Below, piece after piece: positions 1 to 36,077 of a stretch of 64,000 nucleotides of DNA. This stretch comes from Spelaeicoccus albus (lineage in GTDB: Bacteria > Actinomycetota > Actinomycetes > Actinomycetales > Brevibacteriaceae): positions 1,674,001 to 1,738,000 of the forward strand of contig NZ_JACBZP010000001.1 of the NCBI RefSeq assembly GCF_013409065.1, in the 5' to 3' direction. Numbering within the stretch: position 1 is the first letter of the stretch; each line of letters opens with the position of its first letter. A program made the translations under genes and the position numbers. Under the pieces are notes generated by a model. It was given only the letters and a program-made list of their open reading frames with translations. It was not told the origin of the DNA and made no database searches.

Positions 1-703
1 TCGTGTACGGCAGCATTTTGGCCAGCATGGACTCGGGGCTCTCGATTTCTCGATGCAGCCGCACGATATTGCCGATATCGGGATTCAGTCCGCAGTTGCT
101 GCGGTCGATGTCCTTGACCAGCTGGACGGCGGAGTCCGCCGTGCCGACGTACGTGTCCTCGTACATCTCGAGGGACACGTTGATTCCCTGAATGGCAGCG
201 GCGTCGCTGATCTTCTGCAACCGTTCGACCGCCAGGGCCCAGGTGTCCGGGTCGTCGGCGGGGTCCTTGTGGCCGTCAACGAGCCAGAACCAATGGGCCT
301 GCTTTTGCTCGTCGGTCAGCGGCATGTGCAGGCCGATGGACAGGACCGACGAGCCGAGGTATTTCACGGCGTCGATAGTGCGCAGCGCGTAATCGAAGTT
401 GTCCTGCGCGACCTGTGGATCGGGTGCGATGACGCTGCGCCGGACGACGGAGATCGCCGTCACGCCGAGGCCCGCGTCGTCGAGCGACGACTTCAATTCG
501 GCAAGCCGGTCGGGGGACAGATCGCCGGGGCGGAGCCAACTGTCGGTGAAGTCGACGTGGTCGAACCCTTCGTGCACGAGTTCGGCGAACACCTTGTCCC
601 AGACCGAGCGGTCGGCATCTTGGACGGACGTGCCATCGGGAAGCGTGGCGCCGTACTGCAACATTGCCGCGCCCATCGGCCAAGTTTGTGAGGTGTAAGC
701 CAT
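1..703 (-). CDS. Sugar phosphate isomerase/epimerase, TIM barrel (C-terminus cut by window edge)
   Basis: At least 234 residues are present; the gene reads leftwards and runs off the window before its stop. It starts at ATG 703 with AAGGAC about 10 bases upstream. The protein resembles the AP-endonuclease-2-like sugar phosphate isomerase/epimerase family, which isomerises keto sugars, inositols or related compounds with a divalent metal. Supporting segments are LEMYEDTYVGT and GLNPDIGNI, where a Glu and an Asp of the metal site are expected. It is divergent from the monooxygenase at 909, across about 205 bases with an AT-rich stretch near 756-780. The substrate cannot be inferred from this window. 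Confidence 0.75.
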   Translation of the reverse strand, partial: MAYTSQTWPMGAAMLQYGATLPDGTSVQDADRSVWDKVFAELVHEGFDHVDFTDSWLRPGDLSPDRLAELKSSLDDAGLGVTAISVVRRSVIAPDPQVAQDNFDYALRTIDAVKYLGSSVLSIGLHMPLTDEQKQAHWFWLVDGHKDPADDPDTWALAVERLQKISDAAAIQGINVSLEMYEDTYVGTADSAVQLVKDIDRSNCGLNPDIGNIVRLHREIESPESMLAKMLPYT

Positions 704-908
704 TGAAAATCGGGTCCTTCTTCGAGTGCGCACGCGGCGCTAGCCAACTTTCCCCAGATCGTATAGGAAATATAAAACCCTGTCGAGGAGACGGGGGTGT
801 CAAGCCGCAGCATACCCGCCGAGCCGGGGGAGTACGTCGGCGGCGGAAGCGAACTATTGTGGGAGACAAGGTCGGCATCGGCCACGGAATCAGAAAGGCG
901 GTGGCGGC

Positions 909-1229
909 GTGATTCTCATAGTCGTCAAATTCCACACGAAGCCCGAGTGGACGGAGAAGTGGTTGGACCTTGTCGACGGGTTCACGAAAGCGACCCGGTC
1001 CGAGCCGGGCAATCTGTGGTTTGACTGGTCGCGCAGCGTGGAGAATGCGGACGAGTTCGTGCTTGTCGAAGCGTTCAAGGACGATGCGGCCGAGTCGCAT
1101 GTGACGAGCGCTCACTTCCAGCAGGCGATGAAGGACATGCTGCCGGCTCTGGCCGAGACGCCGCACATCATCAACACAAATGTCGACGGCGAAGAATGGT
1201 CGCGGATGGGCGAACTCGCCGTCGACTAA
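909..1229 (+). CDS. Antibiotic biosynthesis monooxygenase (ABM/YgiN-like) domain protein
   Basis: A 106-residue single-domain protein starting at GTG 909. The pattern of an N-terminal beta strand (ILIVVKFH), the segment EPGNLWFDWSR, and then FVLVEAFKDD with a conserved His region (HVTSAHFQQ) matches the ABM dimeric alpha-beta barrel. Members oxidise quinols or polyketides without a cofactor, or degrade haem, usually as homodimers in the cytoplasm. It lies opposite the partial sugar isomerase and converges with the amidohydrolase, the two stop codons overlapping by four bases. The substrate is unknown; quinol monooxygenase is the usual default. Confidence 0.75.
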   Translation: MILIVVKFHTKPEWTEKWLDLVDGFTKATRSEPGNLWFDWSRSVENADEFVLVEAFKDDAAESHVTSAHFQQAMKDMLPALAETPHIINTNVDGEEWSRMGELAVD

Positions 1230-2344
1230 CGGACGCGCTCGCCGGCGATCCAAACGCCGCGAATGTTTTTGGTCGCGGAGATGTCGGCGAGCGGATCGCC
1301 GTCGATGAGGACGAGATCGGCGCGCCGTCCGGCCTCGATGCTGCCGCGGTCGCCGAGCCCCAGATGCCGGGCCGGCATGACTGTCGCTCCGCGCAGGGCA
1401 TCCAGCGGCGCCATCCCGGCCGCGACGAGCAGTTCGAGTTCATCGTGCAAGGACTCACCGTGCGCGACCTGGAGCGGTGCTCCCGGGGCCGCGTTCGAGT
1501 CCGTGCCGACGAGGATCGGCACGTTTGCGCGATCCATGGCCGCGACGGAAAGCTCGGCATTACGGAAGTCCACCTCGGCTCCGTGGGTGCGCGACCGGGC
1601 GAACCGGACGGCGCCGCGCATCATCACGAGTGTGGGAACCGACACTTGGCCATCCGCCACAATCGACTCGACGAGCCCGTCGTCCAACACGGCATCGAGC
1701 GGAACGTGCGTGAGCACGTCGACACCGGCATCGACGGCGATCCGGACCGCCGGAACCGTCGTCACATGCGCATACACGAGTAGGTCTCGGGCATGGGCGG
1801 CCTCCACCAGAGCGGTCGCCCGTTCGACGTCCAACGCCGCCGCCCCCATCACATCGGGGTCTTCCACAATGATCTTGAGATAGTCGGCGCCCTCGGCCAC
1901 ACGCGCGGCCACGAACGGTTCGGCGTCGTCCGACGTTGCGACGGCGGTTGCGGGATCGAACCCCATCGCGGTCGTTTGCATGCCGCCCGGCGCCGATGCC
2001 GGGCTTTCCGAGCTGCGAATGTCCGTCAGGCCCGGCAGGCCGCGCAGCTTCGCGACCAGGTCCGGCGACGGCGTGCCCATCCCGAGCATCGTCGTGATGC
2101 CCCAATGCGCGGCGTCCTCGAGGTTCTTTCGGCCGTCGAGGTGGACGTGGGCGTCGATGAGCCCCGGCAGGAGTGTGAGACCGCTTCCGTCGACGGCGCC
2201 GGGCGGCACGTCGCCGGAGTCGTCCGGTGTGACGCGGACGATCCGTCCACCGTCGAACGTCACGGTGGCCGGGCCGCTCAGGGCCGTTCCGCCGAAGTAG
2301 TGGACGTGCGCGATCGTTCCGGAGTCGGATGATGGTGAACTCAT
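1226..2344 (-). CDS. Amidohydrolase family protein (imidazolonepropionase-like)
   Basis: This 372-residue protein has the metallo-dependent hydrolase layout. A short N-terminal beta-sandwich is followed by the metal motif DAHVHLDGRK near residue 60, later metal ligands in YAHVT and LTHVPLD, and LVGTDSN as the catalytic Asp strand. A C-terminal segment (GRRADLVLIDGDPLADI) closes the sandwich, as in cytosine-deaminase and imidazolonepropionase-like enzymes. No signal peptide is seen, so it should act in the cytoplasm on a C-N bond of unknown substrate. It follows the LysR gene by 28 bases on the same strand, so the two may be co-transcribed. Confidence 0.8.
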   Translation of the reverse strand: MSSPSSDSGTIAHVHYFGGTALSGPATVTFDGGRIVRVTPDDSGDVPPGAVDGSGLTLLPGLIDAHVHLDGRKNLEDAAHWGITTMLGMGTPSPDLVAKLRGLPGLTDIRSSESPASAPGGMQTTAMGFDPATAVATSDDAEPFVAARVAEGADYLKIIVEDPDVMGAAALDVERATALVEAAHARDLLVYAHVTTVPAVRIAVDAGVDVLTHVPLDAVLDDGLVESIVADGQVSVPTLVMMRGAVRFARSRTHGAEVDFRNAELSVAAMDRANVPILVGTDSNAAPGAPLQVAHGESLHDELELLVAAGMAPLDALRGATVMPARHLGLGDRGSIEAGRRADLVLIDGDPLADISATKNIRGVWIAGERVR

Positions 2345-22352: not shown

Positions 22353-23003
22353 GTGTCGAAGATCGCCATTATCGGAGGACACGGCAAGATCGCTTTGCAG
22401 CTGGCGCGCATCTTGACCGGCGACGGACATTCCGTCAGCTCATTGATTCGCAATCCGGACCACACCGCGGACGTCGAGCGGACCGGCGCGTCGCCGGTCA
22501 TGGCGGATGTCGAGCGCATGGACGTGGGCGCCATGGCTGCTGCAATGGCCGGGCAGGACGCGGTCGTGTGGTCGGCGGGGGCCGGCGGCGGCGACCCCGA
22601 ACGAACCTACGCGGTCGACAGGGACGCGGCGATCCGATCGATGGACGCGGCCGAGCAGGCAGGAGTTCCGCGGTACGTCATGGTGTCGTATTTCGGTGCC
22701 TCGCCGCAGCACGGTGTCGACCCGGACAATCCGTTTTATGCCTACGCCGAGTCCAAGGCGGCGGCCGATGCGCACCTTGCGGCAACCTCGTTGGCGTGGA
22801 CCATTCTGGGGCCCGGCAAACTCACCGACGGACCGGCCACCGGGTTGATCGAGATCGGGGCCGACTCCGGCGAAGTGACCCGCGACGACGTGGCAGGCGT
22901 GGCCGCAACGGTGCTGCGGATGCCGGAGTCGGCAGGCAAATTCCTGCAGTTCACGGGTGGCGACACGCCGATCGACCGCGCCCTCGCCGACGCGAGCCGC
23001 TGA
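22353..23003 (+). CDS. NAD(P)-binding Rossmann-fold protein (atypical SDR)
   Basis: A 216-residue protein. I place the start at GTG 22353, preceded by AAAGTGAG; an in-frame ATG at 22320 adds 11 residues. IAIIGGHGKIA is the nucleotide-binding loop of NmrA/YwnB-like atypical short-chain dehydrogenases. VVWSAGAGG and MVSYFGAS follow, with YAESKAAAD in the position of the YxxxK motif. Such proteins sense or oxidise using NAD(P)H; the substrate is unknown. It is divergent from the YeeE-like gene. Confidence 0.78.
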   Translation: MSKIAIIGGHGKIALQLARILTGDGHSVSSLIRNPDHTADVERTGASPVMADVERMDVGAMAAAMAGQDAVVWSAGAGGGDPERTYAVDRDAAIRSMDAAEQAGVPRYVMVSYFGASPQHGVDPDNPFYAYAESKAAADAHLAATSLAWTILGPGKLTDGPATGLIEIGADSGEVTRDDVAGVAATVLRMPESAGKFLQFTGGDTPIDRALADASR

Positions 23004-29078: not shown

Positions 29079-29657
29079 CTACGCGTGGTTCGCGGCGGTC
29101 GTCGAGGCTCGACGCACTGTTCGGAGTCTGAAGAACGCGGCAATGGCCGACGCGGCAGCCGCGACGGCACAAGCCGCAATCGCGGCGGCGAGGTCCGGCC
29201 TGTTCGTCATCAGGTACAGCAACGCCACAACCTGTGACGTGCCGAAAAAGACCACATAGGTCGGTCTGGCAGCCAGCTGGATTGCGCGGAGATCGGCTTG
29301 CGGTATCTCGCCCGATGCGCCGGCAATCGCCGTCCGGAGGCGCCTGTCGTCACTTGCCTCCACGGTGGGCCCCATTGCCGCCAATATCGCAGTGACGACC
29401 AAGGAAGTGACGACCCAGCCGGCGGTCCAGGGGATGCCGTATCCATTCTGCGCGACCAGGTAGAGACCGGACCCGATGATCACGAGCATGGCCGGGATGA
29501 TCACGACTTCGACGCGCGTCGTCCCCGCGATCAGTGATCGCAGCTCGCGTACGGTCCCGGCAGTCTGTATGCGCAGCATCGTCAGCACGGTGGCGGTCAC
29601 GGAACCGACAAGAAGAGCGACGCCCAACAGGTGTACGAACAGCGCAACGTGAATCAT
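29079..29657 (-). CDS. Integral membrane protein, DUF2269-like
   Basis: A 192-residue protein with about five hydrophobic segments, beginning MIHVALFVHLLGVALLVGSV, with a His in TM1 as in DUF2269-type proteins. GSGLYLVAQNGYGI and WTAGWVVTSLVV follow. No catalytic motif is visible. It lies 49 bases downstream of the NAD(P)-binding oxidoreductase on the same strand, so both may be controlled by the divergent MarR regulator. The family assignment is from pattern only. Confidence 0.6.
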   Translation of the reverse strand: MIHVALFVHLLGVALLVGSVTATVLTMLRIQTAGTVRELRSLIAGTTRVEVVIIPAMLVIIGSGLYLVAQNGYGIPWTAGWVVTSLVVTAILAAMGPTVEASDDRRLRTAIAGASGEIPQADLRAIQLAARPTYVVFFGTSQVVALLYLMTNRPDLAAAIAACAVAAAASAIAAFFRLRTVRRASTTAANHA

Positions 29658-29706: not shown

Positions 29707-30576
29707 TCATCGCGACTTCGCCGCCGTCACGGCTTCCCGGACGGCTTCGTGCGCCGTGATCGCCGGCCGGCCAATGAGCTTCGCCAGGTCGTCGCTAGCG
29801 GTGAACAACTCTCCGCGAGCCAGGCCGGCGTCGGCGTCGGCGACGGAGGCAGCCATCTCTGCGGGCAGCCCCGCAGCAGTCAGAGTGCCGGTGAAATCCG
29901 CAACCGACATGTCTTGATAGGCGATGGGGGAGCCGAGGACGTCGCTGAATGTGGCGGCGAGTTCGGCCAGGGTCAACGCCGTTCCGCCGAGTTCGTAGGT
30001 CGCTCCGAGGTGCCCGTCCTGCGTGAGTACTGCGGCGGCGGCTGCTGCGAGATCGCGTCGGCTGACGGCGCTGACGCGGCCATCGCGCGCGCTGCCCATC
30101 AATGCGTGATATTGCGCGATCACCGGGAGTTGGTCGGTGTAGTTCTCCAAGTACCACCCATTGCGCAGGATGACGAAGGCCGCACCGCTGTTACGCAGGT
30201 ACTCCTCGGTACGACGATGTGCGTCGGCGAGCGTCATCCGTGCGGTCGAGGCGTTGACCATGCTGGTGTACACGATCTTGGACACCCCCGCTCGAACGGC
30301 CGCGTCGATGGCGGTGCGGGCATTGTCGAATCGTTCACCGACCGTGCTCGTGGAGACCAGCAGCATCGCGTCGGTGCCCACGAGAGCGTCGTCGAGCGTG
30401 GCCGGATCGGCGAAGTCTGCCCGCCGGACCGTGACGTCGCGCTGGGCGAGATCGGCGAGTTTGTCAGTGCGTCGACCCGTGGCCACGATCTGCGTCGGTG
30501 GTGTTCCCGTGGCGAGGAGCTGATCGACGACTAGCCGGCCGAGGTGACCTGATGCTCCGGTGACGACTATGGACAT
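29707..30576 (-). CDS. NAD(P)-binding oxidoreductase, NmrA/QorB-like
   Basis: A 289-residue atypical SDR. The N-terminal loop VTGASGHLGRLV binds NAD(P). IVYTSMVNAS and ILRNGWYLENY are typical of the QorB/NmrA-like quinone oxidoreductases and redox sensors. QorB reduces quinones with NADPH. The gene is divergent from a MarR-family gene across about 170 bases that hold a 21-base imperfect palindrome, the usual arrangement for a regulator of electrophile or quinone response. Confidence 0.85.
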   Translation of the reverse strand: MSIVVTGASGHLGRLVVDQLLATGTPPTQIVATGRRTDKLADLAQRDVTVRRADFADPATLDDALVGTDAMLLVSTSTVGERFDNARTAIDAAVRAGVSKIVYTSMVNASTARMTLADAHRRTEEYLRNSGAAFVILRNGWYLENYTDQLPVIAQYHALMGSARDGRVSAVSRRDLAAAAAAVLTQDGHLGATYELGGTALTLAELAATFSDVLGSPIAYQDMSVADFTGTLTAAGLPAEMAASVADADAGLARGELFTASDDLAKLIGRPAITAHEAVREAVTAAKSR

Positions 30577-30605
30577 GATGTTTCCTTTCGATAGATGTTG
30601 CTGAA

Positions 30606-30626
30606 ATAGTCAATAATCTTTACTAT
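30606..30626. promoter_or_regulatory. Candidate MarR operator 1 (oxidoreductase/marR intergenic)
   Basis: An imperfect palindrome in which 8 of 10 base pairs are symmetric; the core is TAGTCA-N7-TTACTA (30607-30625). It lies 30 bases upstream of the oxidoreductase start and about 120 bases upstream of the MarR start. The half-sites match those of a second palindrome at 31198-31216. Confidence 0.6.
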
Positions 30627-30744
30627 AATCATCAGCGCTACAGAAAACAAACGCTGCGGATACGCAGTGACGACTCGGTGCGACAGGATTGACGTAGAGT
30701 GTGAACCCGTGGGACCGGACGGGATGAAGGGAGTCGAGAGCGGC

Positions 30745-31188
30745 ATGGACGACGATGAGCAGATCAACCTCGGCGTGTTGTTGTTCATCCCGTGGCGGTA
30801 CAGCGAGGACCGAATGTTCCGGGCTCTTCAGAATGCCGGGTTCGACGATTGGACCCTTGCTCAGTGCCGCGTGTTTCAACGCGTCGCCCCGGATGGCTCG
30901 CGGCTCACGGATCTCGCTGACCAGGCGCAGATGAGCAAGCAGAGCGCCGGGGTAATGGTCGATCAATTGGAACGCCTCGGCTATGTTCGCCGGGTTCCTG
31001 ATCCCGCGGATGGCCGCGCGCGATTAATCGTCATCGAGGGACGTGGCTTACGGGCGTCGGAAACGGCTCAGTCGACACTCGACGAAATTCTCTCGGAGTG
31101 GAAGACCTACCTGGGCACCCGTAACTTCACGCTGCTGCGGCAGATCCTGGACCAGCTTCGCGAGATAACCGACCCGTACGCACGATGA
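30745..31188 (+). CDS. MarR-family transcriptional regulator
   Basis: A 147-residue regulator from ATG 30745; in-frame ATGs at 30724 and 30667 are alternatives. The winged helix-turn-helix lies in LTDLADQAQMSKQSAGVMV and the wing in RRVPDPADGRARLI. The N- and C-terminal helices form the dimer interface. MarR proteins usually repress a neighbouring gene until a phenolic or oxidising ligand binds. Palindromes with matching half-sites lie on both sides of the gene, so it may control both the divergent oxidoreductase and the downstream CopD-CtaG operon. Confidence 0.88.
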   Translation: MDDDEQINLGVLLFIPWRYSEDRMFRALQNAGFDDWTLAQCRVFQRVAPDGSRLTDLADQAQMSKQSAGVMVDQLERLGYVRRVPDPADGRARLIVIEGRGLRASETAQSTLDEILSEWKTYLGTRNFTLLRQILDQLREITDPYAR

Positions 31189-31197
31189 TTCCCGATG

Positions 31198-31216
31198 TAG
31201 TCATGGTCTATGACTA
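31198..31216. promoter_or_regulatory. Candidate MarR operator 2 (upstream of copD-ctaG)
   Basis: TAGTCATggtctATGACTA is a perfect palindrome with seven-base arms, ten bases after the MarR stop. It shares the outer half-sites TAGTCA and T-K-ACTA with the palindrome at 30606-30626, at the same 19-base spacing. TAATGT at 31215-31220 is a possible -10 box for the downstream operon, so a bound repressor would cover the promoter. Confidence 0.6.
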
Positions 31217-31306
31217 ATGTTGTAGGAGGTTCTCATTGTCCGCCGACCTGGCGCGGCGGGGTGAATCCGCGGTGGTTCGCGTCTTTCCACGCGCTGTAGA
31301 ATTGCC

Positions 31307-33256
31307 GTGGATATGCGTATCGATTCCAGAGGCAAGTTTTCGTGGCTGCCCGTGCTCGTGGGGGCGGCGGCCGCAGTCGTGCTCGCAGTCGCTGCGGTCA
31401 CGGTGCCGGGTGAGGCCAATTACTCGAGTGTGAACGAGAACTTTCCGGGCTTGCCCACGGCTGTGACGTCGAGCGTGCTGCGACTGATTTCCTATCTCAC
31501 CGGTGCCGTGACAATTGGCGCGCTCGTCGTCGGCCTGGCCATGATCCCGGCCCGGAGGAGCGGGCGGATCACCCCGCCTGCGGCGCGGGCCTTCGGCACT
31601 GCCGGTTCCTTCGGCTTGCTCTGGGCGCTGACGGCCTGCATCCTCATCGTGGTCGATGCGGCAGACACCAACGGACTGTCCGTGGCGCGCGGGATCAGCC
31701 CCGAAGCGCTCATGACGATGATCGGCGCGGCCAACCTGCCCAAGGCGTGGATTCTCGTGACCATCGGCGCCGGGGTGGTCGGGTTCACGGCCGGCGCCGT
31801 GCGCACGTGGCGCGCGGCGGTCCTGCTCCTGGTCGTCGCGGGTCTGAGCGTGCTTCCGCCCGTCGTGACGGGCCATGTGGCAGTTGCCGCCAATCACGAC
31901 TGGGAAACGGACGCCGCCATGTTCGGCTCCATCGCCGTGGCCGTATGGATCGGTTCGGCAATGGTGCTCAGCACCAGGCGCTCGACCCGCCCGCTGGCGG
32001 ACCCGGCGGCGCTGAGGTTCCGCAGGCTGTCGTGGTGGGCGTTCGGCATTGTGGGCCTGACCGACCTCATCGTCGACGTGTTCGAACTGGCGGGCACCAA
32101 TCCTCTGGCCAGCGTGTCCGGCCGGATCATGATTGCCCGCATGCTGGTGCTGGTGGCGCTCGGCGTGCTGACGGCGGCGCCCGGCGCGATCGGACGTCGC
32201 GCTGATACGCGCAGCGCCGGGCGCCGAACGGCCGGACCGGCCGCATTCATGCCGGCCGTCTGGATCATGCTGGGGCTCGGCTACTTCGGACTCACCGCCG
32301 CAATGGACAGGATCCCGCCGCCGCGTTATTTCGCTTCCGACGTCACGATCCAAAAGACCCTGCTCGGCTACACCCTGCCCGATCCGCCGACTTCGCTGAA
32401 CCTGCTGCTCACGTGGCGGGTCAACATCTTGTTCCTGACGATCGCCGTGGCCGGGGTCGCCGTCTATCTGTGGGGCGTGCGGCGCCTTCGCATCCGGACG
32501 ACGCACGCGTGGCCGCTTCACCGCACAGTCTCCTGGATCGCCGGCTGGGCGTCGGTCGTGGCAGTCACCACTGCCGGACCCGGCGTGTATTCGCCGGCGA
32601 CCTTCAGCATGCACATGGCCACGCACATGGTGCTGGGAATGATCTCACCGCTGCTGCTGGTGCTTGGTGCGCCGATCACGTTGACTCTTGCTTCGACATC
32701 CGGTCGTGCCGGGCCGTTCGCCGGCCCCCGGGAGTGGATCACCGGATGCGTCAACTCACCAATGATGCGGGTACTTGCCAACCCGGCAGTCGTGTTCGTC
32801 ATCTACATCGTCGGCTACTTCGGCTTCTACATGACGCCGGCCTTCACTCACCTGATGATCTTCCACTGGGGACACCAAGTCGTCAGACTGTTCTTTTTGG
32901 TGATCGGCTACTTGTTCTTTTGGCTTGTCGTCGGCGCCGACAAACCGCCGAAGTCGCTGCCGGCGCTCGGCAAGCTGGCGTTCGTGTTCGCCATGATGCC
33001 CTTCCACGCCGTCTTCGCCATCGTGATCATGTCGATGCGCACCATCATCGGATACACCTACTTCACGTATCTGGACGCGAAGTGGAGGGGCGGCCTGAAG
33101 GCCGATCAATTCGCCGGCGGGATCATCGACTGGATCGGCGGCGAAGCGCCGCTGGTCTTCGTGATCGCCGGCCTGCTCCTCGTGTGGATGCGGCAAGACC
33201 GGCAGCGGACCGAATTCTCACCCGACACCGTCTCCGTGCTCGAAGGACGCCGATGA
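31307..33256 (+). CDS. CopD-CtaG fusion: copper resistance D domain plus cytochrome oxidase assembly domain
   Basis: A 649-residue membrane protein with start at GTG 31307 or ATG 31313; AGGAGG lies too far upstream (31224-31229) to serve it. The N-terminal half, about eight TM helices, is CopD-like (VTGHVAVAANHDWE). The C-terminal half is CtaG/Caa3-type (SMHMATHMVLGM, HLMIFHWGHQ, MMPFHAVFAIVIMSM) with His and Met residues suited to copper. Such fusions are typical of actinobacteria and are thought to supply copper to respiratory oxidases. The next gene, copA, overlaps by ATGA. Confidence 0.88.
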   Translation: MDMRIDSRGKFSWLPVLVGAAAAVVLAVAAVTVPGEANYSSVNENFPGLPTAVTSSVLRLISYLTGAVTIGALVVGLAMIPARRSGRITPPAARAFGTAGSFGLLWALTACILIVVDAADTNGLSVARGISPEALMTMIGAANLPKAWILVTIGAGVVGFTAGAVRTWRAAVLLLVVAGLSVLPPVVTGHVAVAANHDWETDAAMFGSIAVAVWIGSAMVLSTRRSTRPLADPAALRFRRLSWWAFGIVGLTDLIVDVFELAGTNPLASVSGRIMIARMLVLVALGVLTAAPGAIGRRADTRSAGRRTAGPAAFMPAVWIMLGLGYFGLTAAMDRIPPPRYFASDVTIQKTLLGYTLPDPPTSLNLLLTWRVNILFLTIAVAGVAVYLWGVRRLRIRTTHAWPLHRTVSWIAGWASVVAVTTAGPGVYSPATFSMHMATHMVLGMISPLLLVLGAPITLTLASTSGRAGPFAGPREWITGCVNSPMMRVLANPAVVFVIYIVGYFGFYMTPAFTHLMIFHWGHQVVRLFFLVIGYLFFWLVVGADKPPKSLPALGKLAFVFAMMPFHAVFAIVIMSMRTIIGYTYFTYLDAKWRGGLKADQFAGGIIDWIGGEAPLVFVIAGLLLVWMRQDRQRTEFSPDTVSVLEGRR

Positions 33257-35547
33257 CCACCGCAACCGACAACCCACGCACTGACGGCGCACCCGACCCG
33301 GGGGCTGCCGCATCGGCACCGCTCGTGTTCGACATCGGCGGGATGAGCTGTGCGGCCTGCGCCAGCCGGATCGAGCGCAAGGTGAGCAAGCTGGAGGGCG
33401 TGAGCGAAGCTCGCGTCAACTTCGCCACCGAGCGCGCAGCGGTGACGGGGCTGCCCGAATTGTCAGCCGCCGACATCGTGGCCTGTGTCGAGCGGACCGG
33501 CTATACGGCGTCCCTGCATGAATCCGAAGAAGCCGGGGCCGCCGAGTCGCAAGCCCGCTCGCGCATGCTGCTGTGGCGGCTGATCGTTGCGGCACTGCTG
33601 GCGCTGCCGCTCGGCGACCTGACAATCACCCTGGCGTTGGTGCCGTCGCTGCGGTTCACCGGCTGGACGTGGGTGTCCGTCTTGATGGCCGTGCCGGTGG
33701 TGTTCTGGTCGGCCTGGCCGTTCCACAAGGCAACACTGCGCGATATCAGGCAGATGTCGTTCGGCATGGACGCTCTCGTGTCGATAGGCGTCATGGCCTC
33801 CTTCGTCTGGTCGACCTGGACCTTGCTGATCTCACCGTCCACCGAGGCGGGCTACTGGCTGGGCTTCGGCGTCACCCCGGCCGGCGCCGACTCGATCTAT
33901 CTGGACGTCGCGGCAGGCGTGACGACGTTCCTGCTGGCCGGTCGCTACTTCGAAGCGCGCTCGCGCCGTGCGGCGTCCGACGTGCTGAACGCGCTGAACG
34001 CATTGGGTGCCGACACGGCACGCATCATCGCCGACGGGGTTGAAACGGTGCGGCCCATCGACATGCTGATGCCCGGCGAGCACATAGTTGTCAAAGCGGG
34101 CGAAACGGTCCCTGCCGACGGCACCATCGACGAGGGGAGTGCCGATATCGACACCTCGATGATGACCGGCGAGCCGGCGCCGCGCGAACTCGGTCCCGGC
34201 GACGAAGTCCTTGCCGGCACCATCAGCACAAACGGGCGACTGGTCGTCACGGCCACCCGCGTCGGACGACAGACCGAACTCGCGCAAATGGCCGCCCTGG
34301 CCGGTCGCGCGCAAGAAGGCAAGGCCCGGATCCAACGCCTGGCCGATCGGATCGCGTCGGTGTTCGTGCCGGTCGTGATGGCCATCGCGCTCATCACGTT
34401 CGGGGCCTGGCTGCTGAGCGGCGCCGAACTTCGCACCGCGTTCGGCACCGGCCTGGCAGTGCTCATCATCGCCTGCCCGTGCGCACTCGGACTCGCCACG
34501 CCGACCGCGCTCATGGTGGGCGTCGGCCGCGGCTCACAACTGGGCATCCTCATCAAGAGCCACGAGGCGCTCGAGGCCAGCGGCAGCATCGACACAGTCG
34601 TGTTCGACAAGACCGGCACCGTGACGAGCGGCTCGGTGCTGCTCACCCGCGTGTGGGCGCCCGGCCGGGACAAAACTGAGGTCATCCGCTCGGCCGCGGC
34701 CCTGGAACGCCTCTCCGAGCATCCGCTCGGGGCGGCAGTGACCCGGTACGCCGATCGTAATCTGGATGCCGTGCCGGCGGCAGCCGATTTCGCCGTGCAT
34801 CCGGGATTGGGCGTCTCCGGCACTGTCGACGGCCGCCGGGTGCTGGTCGGCAGCCGCACGTTCCTGGCCGGCGAGAGCATCGACGTTCCGAACGATGCGG
34901 CCGAGCTGATCGACGGGTACGAAAAGTCCGGCACCATCGCCGTCCTTGTCGGAATCGACGGACGCCTGGCCGGGGTGCTCGGGCTCGGCGACAAGGTGCG
35001 CCCGTCCGCAGTGCACGCCATGGAGCAGCTGGCATCGATGAAGCTGCGCACCGTGCTGCTCACGGGCGACAGCGAACGGACGGCGCGCGCCGTGGCCGAC
35101 CGGATCGGCGTCGACGAGGTGATTGCCGGCGTGCTGCCTGCCGGCAAGGTCGACGCAATCCGCTCCCTGCAGGACGACGGACGCCGGGTGGCAATGGTGG
35201 GCGACGGGATCAACGATGCGGCCGCTCTGGCCACGGCAAACCTCGGCCTGGCCGTCGGCAAAGCCACCGACATCGCCTTGAAAAGCGCCGACATGATCTT
35301 GGTGCGCGAAGACCTCAGCGTGGTGCCGGACGCCGTCCGGCTTGCCGGGCGCACGCTGCGCACCATCCGCCTGAACTTGTTGTGGGCATTCGGGTACAAC
35401 GTGGCGGCGATTCCGCTGGCCGCGTTCGGACTGCTGAACCCGCTGATCGCCGGGGCCGCCATGTCGCTGTCGTCATTGCTGGTGGTGACGAACAGCCTGC
35501 GGCTGAAGAACGTCGCCGGCAGCGTGCCGGACGAGGACGACTCGTGA
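33253..35547 (+). CDS. copA: Copper-translocating P1B-type ATPase
   Basis: A 764-residue pump starting at ATG 33253, overlapping the CtaG stop. The N-terminal heavy-metal domain has GMSCAAC (Cys33, Cys36). The membrane metal site is CPC (Cys408, Cys410), the phosphorylation site DKTGT (Asp452), the actuator loop TGEP and the hinge GDGIND; SEHPLG is the P1B-specific His-Pro. This set is typical of Cu(I)-ATPases. Pumping copper outward, perhaps to load oxidase or CtaG, fits the operon. The frame is also open upstream to 32413, but that part mirrors ctaG. Confidence 0.93.
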   Translation: MTTATDNPRTDGAPDPGAAASAPLVFDIGGMSCAACASRIERKVSKLEGVSEARVNFATERAAVTGLPELSAADIVACVERTGYTASLHESEEAGAAESQARSRMLLWRLIVAALLALPLGDLTITLALVPSLRFTGWTWVSVLMAVPVVFWSAWPFHKATLRDIRQMSFGMDALVSIGVMASFVWSTWTLLISPSTEAGYWLGFGVTPAGADSIYLDVAAGVTTFLLAGRYFEARSRRAASDVLNALNALGADTARIIADGVETVRPIDMLMPGEHIVVKAGETVPADGTIDEGSADIDTSMMTGEPAPRELGPGDEVLAGTISTNGRLVVTATRVGRQTELAQMAALAGRAQEGKARIQRLADRIASVFVPVVMAIALITFGAWLLSGAELRTAFGTGLAVLIIACPCALGLATPTALMVGVGRGSQLGILIKSHEALEASGSIDTVVFDKTGTVTSGSVLLTRVWAPGRDKTEVIRSAAALERLSEHPLGAAVTRYADRNLDAVPAAADFAVHPGLGVSGTVDGRRVLVGSRTFLAGESIDVPNDAAELIDGYEKSGTIAVLVGIDGRLAGVLGLGDKVRPSAVHAMEQLASMKLRTVLLTGDSERTARAVADRIGVDEVIAGVLPAGKVDAIRSLQDDGRRVAMVGDGINDAAALATANLGLAVGKATDIALKSADMILVREDLSVVPDAVRLAGRTLRTIRLNLLWAFGYNVAAIPLAAFGLLNPLIAGAAMSLSSLLVVTNSLRLKNVAGSVPDEDDS

Positions 35548-36077
35548 TTGCCGACGTCGTCCTGCGCTGGGTCGTCACGGGCGTCTTCGTGGCGTGCAGC
35601 GGGTACTGCACGTCGCGCTTGGTCATCCGCGGCGGCCGCATCGAACAGTTCAACTTGTTCGCGCACCTGTTGATGGCCATCGCCATGATCGCGATGGCGT
35701 GGCCGTCCGGGATGGGGGTGCCGGCCGGCCCGCAGGTCGTCGTCTTCGGACTGGCCGCCGTGTGGCTGGTGGTTCAAGCGCTATTGGCCCGGCGCCCGTG
35801 GATGAAGGGCGCACACGGCACCCACCAGCACCCCATCGCCCTCTGGTATCACGCTTTCATGATGGGCGCCATGGTGCTCATGGTCGTCATGATGGGCAGG
35901 GCCGGCGAATGGATCGCGCCGACTGCCGTCGCGGTGGCCGCGATCTTCGCATTTGCCGCGATCCGGTGGATCGCGGCTGCCGTCCGCCGGCCGCGCGAAA
36001 GACACTGCGTGGTCGAACGCATTTACGAGGTCCTGATGGCGGCCGGCATGGCGAGCATGTTCTTCGTGATGGGGTGA
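35544..36077 (+). CDS. DUF5134 integral membrane protein, Met/His-rich
   Basis: A 177-residue protein starting at GTG 35544, overlapping the copA stop as GTGA. It has about five TM helices and is rich in methionine and histidine within them: FAHLLMAIAMIAMAW and HPIALWYHAFMMGAMVLMVVMM (core WYHAFMMGAM). The pattern fits DUF5134. No function is established for the family. Translation coupled to copA and CtaG, together with these potential Cu(I) ligands, suggests a copper-handling membrane partner; this is inference. Confidence 0.75.
   Translation: MIADVVLRWVVTGVFVACSGYCTSRLVIRGGRIEQFNLFAHLLMAIAMIAMAWPSGMGVPAGPQVVVFGLAAVWLVVQALLARRPWMKGAHGTHQHPIALWYHAFMMGAMVLMVVMMGRAGEWIAPTAVAVAAIFAFAAIRWIAAAVRRPRERHCVVERIYEVLMAAGMASMFFVMG

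What the first reader, a model, noticed from the sequence alone, without database searches (positions are those of the whole stretch)
30606..31216. Twin operators flank the marR gene and tie it to the copper/CtaG operon
TAGTCA-N7-TTACTA upstream of marR and its divergent oxidoreductase, and TAGTCA-N7-TGACTA just after marR and over the likely promoter of copD-ctaG-copA-DUF5134, share half-sites and an identical 19-base span. Two such matches 0.6 kb apart, one on each side of a MarR gene, are unlikely by chance. A redox or phenolic-sensing MarR controlling copper supply to respiratory oxidases would be an unusual link.
Basis: partly seen in the sequence, partly recalled or inferred. Interest (0 to 1): 0.65.

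Follow-up and report, generated by a model that had tools for sequence, protein, structure and literature searches.

The report
Redox MarR cassette with twin operators
The two matching DNA palindromes on either side of a regulator gene are very likely its binding sites, because they go with this regulator in many actinobacteria, but there they guard redox-type genes, and the copper genes found next to them here look like a new neighbour whose control is unproven.

Summary
The palindromes are real, and comparison shows they are almost certainly this MarR's operators. Of 62 loci with relatives (57 at 77-87% identity), 43 have TAGTCA-N7-TGACTA upstream and 41 of 61 have it downstream (<=1 mismatch; scrambled half-sites average 0.05 and 0.07). 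In 33 more distant relatives the upstream site recurs (25 at <=2 mismatches), a downstream one only once. All 37 loci with a co-directional redox-type gene behind marR have the downstream site; all 12 without the site lack such a gene (59 loci). It mostly follows a TTGA -35 box (39 of 47). The window's four sister cassettes place an NAD(P)H-binding gene there; the window's genome has only 34% hits to it, lacks the TTGAC, and has copD-ctaG-copA-DUF5134 instead. None of 59 other fetched copD-ctaG loci has the site. So the twin operators are inherited with a widespread redox cassette; the copper link is seen only here. No promoter was called at site 2. MarR control of the copper genes, perhaps by read-through and roadblock, is possible but unproven.

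The parts
29079..29657 (-). DUF2269 membrane protein gene, divergent side of the cassette
   Evidence: Pfam PF10027, 7.5e-11; a DUF2269 gene is the nearest divergent gene in 4 of 62 relatives (L036, L039, L047, L082)
29707..30576 (-). NmrA-like NAD(P)H-binding oxidoreductase (qorB-like; the name qorB is recalled)
   Evidence: PF13460 and PF05368; 81% identical to the cassette gene of L060
30601..30629 (+). promoter-like CTGAAA-17-TATAAT pointing at marR, with site 1 as its spacer
   Evidence: consensus scan, 10 of 12
30607..30625 (.). operator site 1, TAGTCAATAATCTTTACTA
   Evidence: site upstream of marR in 43 of 62 relatives at <=1 mismatch and in 18 of 33 distant ones (counted)
30745..31188 (+). 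marR, 147 aa (an upstream in-frame GTG at 30667 gives 173 aa)
   Evidence: PF12802/PF01047; start at 30745 follows the ATG shared with the relatives printed
31198..31216 (.). operator site 2, TAGTCATGGTCTATGACTA, perfect half-sites, 9 nt after the marR stop
   Evidence: site downstream of marR in 41 of 61 relatives at <=1 mismatch
31215..31225 (+). likely remnant of the ancestral downstream promoter: -10-like TAATGT and flank shared best with L039; the -35 (TTGAC) is missing
   Evidence: alignment with L036, L039, L048, L076, L047
31297..31302 (+). possible own -10 (TAGAAT) of a leaderless copD-ctaG transcript
   Evidence: inference
31307..33256 (+). copD-ctaG fusion (CtiP-like); start GTG 31307 or ATG 31313
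   Evidence: Caa3_CtaG PF09678, 7.3e-69; the CopD part gave no Pfam match
33253..35547 (+). copA-like copper P1B-type ATPase
   Evidence: TIGR01511 above cut-off, HMA domain
35544..36077 (+). DUF5134 protein
   Evidence: PF17197, 1.8e-23

Best explanation
This is a horizontally spread redox-stress cassette: a MarR repressor between two operator-promoters, one facing outward to a divergent oxidoreductase operon (here the NmrA-like gene and DUF2269) and one facing downstream. A MarR dimer binds TAGTCA-N7-TGACTA and blocks the promoter whose spacer it fills; an oxidising or quinone-like signal releases it (signal inferred). In this genome the downstream target, most likely an NAD(P)H-binding gene, and the -35 box of its promoter were lost, so the inherited operator now lies 90 bp before an unrelated copper operon. 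I expect MarR still binds site 2 (about 0.9). Any effect on copD-ctaG-copA (about 0.45) would come mainly through read-through from the marR promoter at site 1 and roadblocking at site 2, with most copper-operon transcription from its own start. Shown: conservation, position, association with redox-type genes, absence of the -35. Inferred: horizontal transfer, binding, ligand, the deletion event, and present regulation.
For: Sites on both sides of marR in 32 of 61 relatives at <=1 mismatch, 41 of 61 at <=2, against scrambled means of 0.05 (up) and 0.07 (down) at <=1. Downstream site and co-directional module within 600 bases: 37 loci with both, 10 with site only, 0 with module only, 12 with neither, of 59. 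In 39 of 47 relatives TTGA lies within 10 bp before the downstream site. The window's marR falls with L036, L039, L048 and L076 (support 98/96); all four have the site, TTGAC before it and the NAD(P)H-binding gene after it. Only two hits, 34% identical, to that gene in the own genome. Alignment shows the gap and the absence of TTGAC in the window, with likeness running on to TAATGTTGT. 0 of 59 other fetched copD-ctaG loci have the site within 300 bp upstream at <=3 mismatches. Recognition-helix residues K65 and Q66 are kept in 57 of 57 close rows and in 37 (K) and 35 (Q) of 37 distant rows. Mobility: patchy occurrence and three Streptomyces plasmid records with marR-region matches at 80-82% identity over 66-67% of the query.
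Against: Site 2 is a perfect palindrome although the rest of its promoter is gone, which could mean that it is under selection. Among the 60 family genomes searched none other is of the same genus, so the timing of the loss is unknown. 10 of 47 relatives with the downstream site have other or unrecognised genes behind it, so the target set is open. Upstream, site and recognised divergent module are only loosely tied: 27 with both, 24 site only, 2 module only, 8 neither. No binding data.
Confidence: 0.72

Rival explanations
1. One reading: site 2 covers a working copD-ctaG-copA promoter and MarR directly represses the copper operon, linking redox or phenolic signals to copper supply.
For: Perfect operator 90 bp before copD; in relatives the downstream site goes with a co-directional gene next to it; no terminator-like site on the plus strand between marR and copD.
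Against: -35 absent; no promoter called, best pairs over the site reach 7-8 of 12; 0 of 59 other fetched copD-ctaG loci share it.
Confidence: 0.22
2. Read-through control: marR and the copper operon share one transcript from the site-1 promoter, and MarR at site 2 acts as a roadblock, as the MarR-type GbsR of Bacillus subtilis does at sites downstream of transcription starts.
For: CTGAAA-17-TATAAT with site 1 as spacer; genes co-directional, site 2 between them; roadblocking by GbsR is reported in PMC7396694 (passages seen).
Against: No expression data; a predicted hairpin before copD (z -1.62, not significant) could end or slow transcription; copD may have its own leaderless start.
Confidence: 0.3
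3. Pure relic: site 2 is bound but has no effect on any gene.
For: -35 absent and ancestral gene not found; in eight copD-ctaG relatives of the family (L099-L106) the leader looks different, seven of them with a shared TACTACA-type box (by eye), so copper genes elsewhere seem to have their own control.
Against: All 12 half-site bases are intact although 57 relatives differ from this MarR by 13-23% in protein.
Confidence: 0.35
4. The palindromes belong to another regulator, such as the TetR whose locus carries the same half-sites.
For: TAGTCAACAGCGTTGACTA and TAGTCAACGCTGTTGACAA beside a TetR gene in the same genome.
Against: The sites go with marR in dozens of genomes; the TetR sites have a different, shared core.
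Confidence: 0.05

Closest known systems
MarR repressors with a divergent target and a palindromic operator in the promoter (general MarR plan; stated in the introduction of PMC12421854, passages seen)
   Same: Winged-helix MarR, palindromic operator between marR and a divergent gene
   Different: Here a second conserved operator sits after marR, before a co-directional gene
Quinone-sensing MarR repressor MhqR of Staphylococcus aureus (PMC6798810, PMC12893000; search listing and abstract starts only)
   Same: MarR family; the neighbours here suggest a similar kind of redox or electrophile signal (inference)
   Different: Operator said to differ from recall only; orthology was not tested
GbsR of B. 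subtilis (PMC7396694; abstract and discussion passages)
   Same: MarR-type repressor acting downstream of the start as a roadblock
   Different: Controls gbsAB and opuB; only an analogy for site 2
CtiP, the CopD-CtaG fusion of Corynebacterium glutamicum (PMC9145763; passages seen)
   Same: Caa3_CtaG C-terminal part in a long fusion protein of an actinobacterium
   Different: The window copy is followed by copA and DUF5134, and the genome holds two other CtaG-type matches; oxidase role untested

Membership tests
MarR family | MarR winged-helix domain above the curated cut-off | tested here: met
   PF12802 39.4 bits against 27; PF01047 31.9 against 24.6
MarR family | Palindromic operator at its own gene | tested here: met
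   Conserved upstream site in 43 of 62 and, in distant relatives, 18 of 33 at <=1 mismatch (counted); binding itself not tested
Twin-operator MarR redox cassette (the group defined here) | marR at about 77% identity or more with operators on both sides | tested here: met
Twin-operator MarR redox cassette (the group defined here) | Downstream operator inside the promoter of a co-directional redox-type gene | tested here: not met
   In the window the next gene is copD-ctaG and the -35 box is missing
Quinone/redox-sensing MarR (MhqR-like) | Release from DNA by quinones or oxidants | not testable with these tools
   Only a conserved Cys41 (50 of 57 close rows, 1 of 37 distant rows) and redox-type neighbours
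CtiP (CopD-CtaG fusion) | Caa3_CtaG domain in a long multi-segment protein with a CopD-like part | tested here: inconclusive
   Caa3_CtaG at residues 385-630; the CopD part gave no Pfam match; nearly full-length relatives at 34-41% identity among the best matches
CtiP (CopD-CtaG fusion) | Needed for cytochrome oxidase assembly | not testable with these tools
   Needs an experiment

The most novel reading that the evidence does not exclude
Operator capture: a mobile redox MarR cassette lost its own target gene and brought a copper-import/oxidase-assembly operon under MarR control through the operator it left behind, so that one redox signal now sets both quinone detoxification and copper supply in this lineage.
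Probability: 0.3. Interest if true: 0.6.

Novelty: new member of a known kind. Interest (0 to 1): 0.4.

Why it matters
It gives a comparative operator consensus for a widespread actinobacterial MarR group for which my paper searches found no description, and shows that the genes on both sides vary while the operators stay. That makes the cassette a natural system for asking how regulons gain and lose genes. It also warns that a perfect operator next to a gene can be an inherited leftover.

Tried and rejected
Rejected: chance origin of the pair. Rejected as a general rule: a MarR-copper link. Searching the 62 marR loci (4-8 kb each) with the window's copD-ctaG and copA found copD-ctaG in 1 (L088, 45% and 33%, minus strand, 2.3-4 kb away) and copA in none; I read L088 as chance.

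Led nowhere: a copD-ctaG ortholog close enough for footprinting was not found (best 41% in 394 class genomes and 40% in 396 order genomes). Only fetched loci were scanned for the site; further matches listed without a locus, and the new loci L186-L188, were not. A BlaI-type gene exists in the own genome; the ORFs beside it within 3.3 kb look like an M56-type protein by eye, not copper genes. No TACTACA-type box was found in the window, L098, L201 or L203. The hairpin before copD is not significant. GC of 30100-31299 is 0.60-0.61 against 0.61-0.70 around it, too little to argue from.

Papers: the listings showed no title or abstract start about this MarR group, its operator, or a MarR-CtaG link; some searches listed only part of their matches, and only the held open-access library was searched.

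Errors of mine: and 6 protein 6, and the third query, were in the wrong frame (redone, with one residue near the start left out by a typing slip); one search ignored strand for genome loci and was replaced. Rows dropped: 2 of 63 marR rows (too short or with a stop) from the tree; rows with stops, and L097, from the residue counts.

Full report
Site 1 (30607-30625) and site 2 (31198-31216) share the half-site TAGTCA and a 19-base span; site 2 is a perfect inverted repeat in its half-sites and site 1 has one mismatch. They sit upstream of marR (30745-31188) and 9 nt after its stop. In the own genome two other places match TAGTCA-N7-TGACTA with one mismatch or none, both at a TetR/aldehyde-dehydrogenase/FAD-oxidase locus. 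The total number genome-wide is no higher than the reversed pattern gives, so the argument must come from place and conservation.

Conservation decides it. A pattern-based scan of public genomes, which finds only part of what exists, gave 62 loci encoding relatives of this MarR; 57 are 77-87% identical, four 56-58% and one 34%. They come from Streptomycetaceae, Mycobacteriaceae, Microbacteriaceae, Pseudonocardiaceae, Nocardiaceae and others. In the window's own family the best other matches are 46-51% identical, and in an even sample of 394 genomes of the class 2 others have a close (84-85%) copy. Three Streptomyces plasmid records also match at 80-82% over two thirds of the query. This spread points to horizontal transfer (inference).

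Around the 62 genes the palindrome is found upstream in 43 of 62 and downstream in 41 of 61 loci at one mismatch or less, in both places in 32 of 61; at two or less 52 of 62, 47 of 61 and 41 of 61. One hundred and fifty scrambled half-sites average 0.05 and 0.07 at one mismatch (largest 4 and 10), and the rest of the loci hold 8 sites in 376,490 positions. Distant relatives (33 loci, 45-57% identical, L007-L012 and L159-L185) have the upstream site in 18 at one mismatch or less and 25 at two or less, but a downstream site within two mismatches in only 1 (counted). So the upstream site is old and the downstream site is a feature of the close clade.

The downstream site goes with a neighbouring gene. 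Of 59 loci with enough sequence, 37 have the site and a co-directional module within 600 bases, 10 have the site only, none has a module without the site, and 12 have neither (Fisher p 6e-7, relatedness not corrected). The modules are NAD(P)H-binding (20 loci), NmrA/qorB-like (10, in 7 followed by a hemerythrin gene), methyltransferase-like (3), hemerythrin (3) and F420-quinone-reductase-like (1). Eight of the ten site-only loci were looked at further: a Dyp peroxidase, a GntR-type regulator, a methyltransferase, a SnoaL-like protein and a hemerythrin were found, and three chosen ORFs had no family; L037 and L068 were not examined. None of those identified is a copper gene. On the upstream side the tie is looser: 27 loci with site and recognised divergent module, 24 with site only, 2 with module only, 8 with neither. 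In 39 of 47 relatives TTGA occurs within 10 bases before the downstream site, so that the operator would fill the spacer of the downstream promoter; in at least one of these (L087) the TTGA belongs to a neighbouring copy of the operator.

The window departs from this. Its marR groups with L036, L039, L048 and L076 (98/96; the bootstrap had not settled); all four have the site, TTGAC just before it, and an NAD(P)H-binding gene after it. In the window the stretch before site 2 is shorter (12 nt from the last sense codon, against 28-126 in the relatives) and TTGAC is missing, while likeness, best with L039, runs through the site to TAATGTTGT and then fades. The genome has no close copy of the NAD(P)H-binding gene (two hits at 34%, one at window 22359-22838). 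I conclude that this gene and part of its promoter were probably lost and that copD-ctaG-copA-DUF5134 now follows the leftover operator.

Is the copper operon controlled? No promoter-like pair was called at site 2. The best pairs over the site reach 7-8 of 12; a pair at 31276-31302 also reaches 8 and would suit a leaderless start of copD (inference). In 59 other fetched copD-ctaG loci (L088, L099-L156) none has the site within 300 bp upstream, the best having 4 mismatches; most of these proteins are only 27-40% identical, so they are not close orthologs. Seven of eight family relatives of the nearer type (L099-L106) share a TACTACA-type box at the start instead, read by eye; its likeness to BlaI/CopY boxes is recalled. 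No terminator-like site was found on the plus strand between marR and copD, so read-through from the site-1 promoter and roadblocking at site 2 remain open; roadblocking by a MarR-type protein is reported for GbsR (PMC7396694, passages). The copper protein resembles CtiP (PMC9145763, passages), but the genome has two other CtaG-type matches, so a role in oxidase supply is a guess.

The signal is inferred. Neighbours are mostly redox-type genes, and one cysteine (Cys41) is kept in 50 of 57 close rows but in 1 of 37 distant ones. No solved MarR is close by sequence (best phmmer E 3.2e-6).

Noticed in passing
own genome C1:633728-633746 and 635960-635978 (L001, L004): A TetR gene next to aldehyde dehydrogenase and FAD oxidase genes has two sites with the same half-sites (TAGTCA/TGACTA, one with a mismatch) 2.2 kb apart, so cross-talk with the MarR is conceivable.
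   Followed up: partly
L049, L051, L061, L072, L074, L077, L084 and others, downstream of marR: Several relatives carry a second copy of the operator, mostly weaker, 21-22 bp from the first downstream site, about two helical turns, suggesting paired dimers; the window lacks it.
   Followed up: no
L088 (Pseudonocardia sp. CNS-004) 2-1677, minus strand: A copD-ctaG homologue lies 2.3-4 kb from a marR relative, beyond a divergent SDR gene.
   Followed up: partly
L099-L104 and L106, just before copD-ctaG: A shared box of the type CTACTACA-N-TG-N3-CGTA directly before the start of copD-ctaG in seven of eight family relatives (by eye); a candidate copper-regulator site.
   Followed up: no
window 30694-30711: A TAG(A/G)GT-GTG stretch in the marR leader recurs in many of the relatives printed and could be part of a second, site-1-independent promoter of marR.
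   Followed up: no
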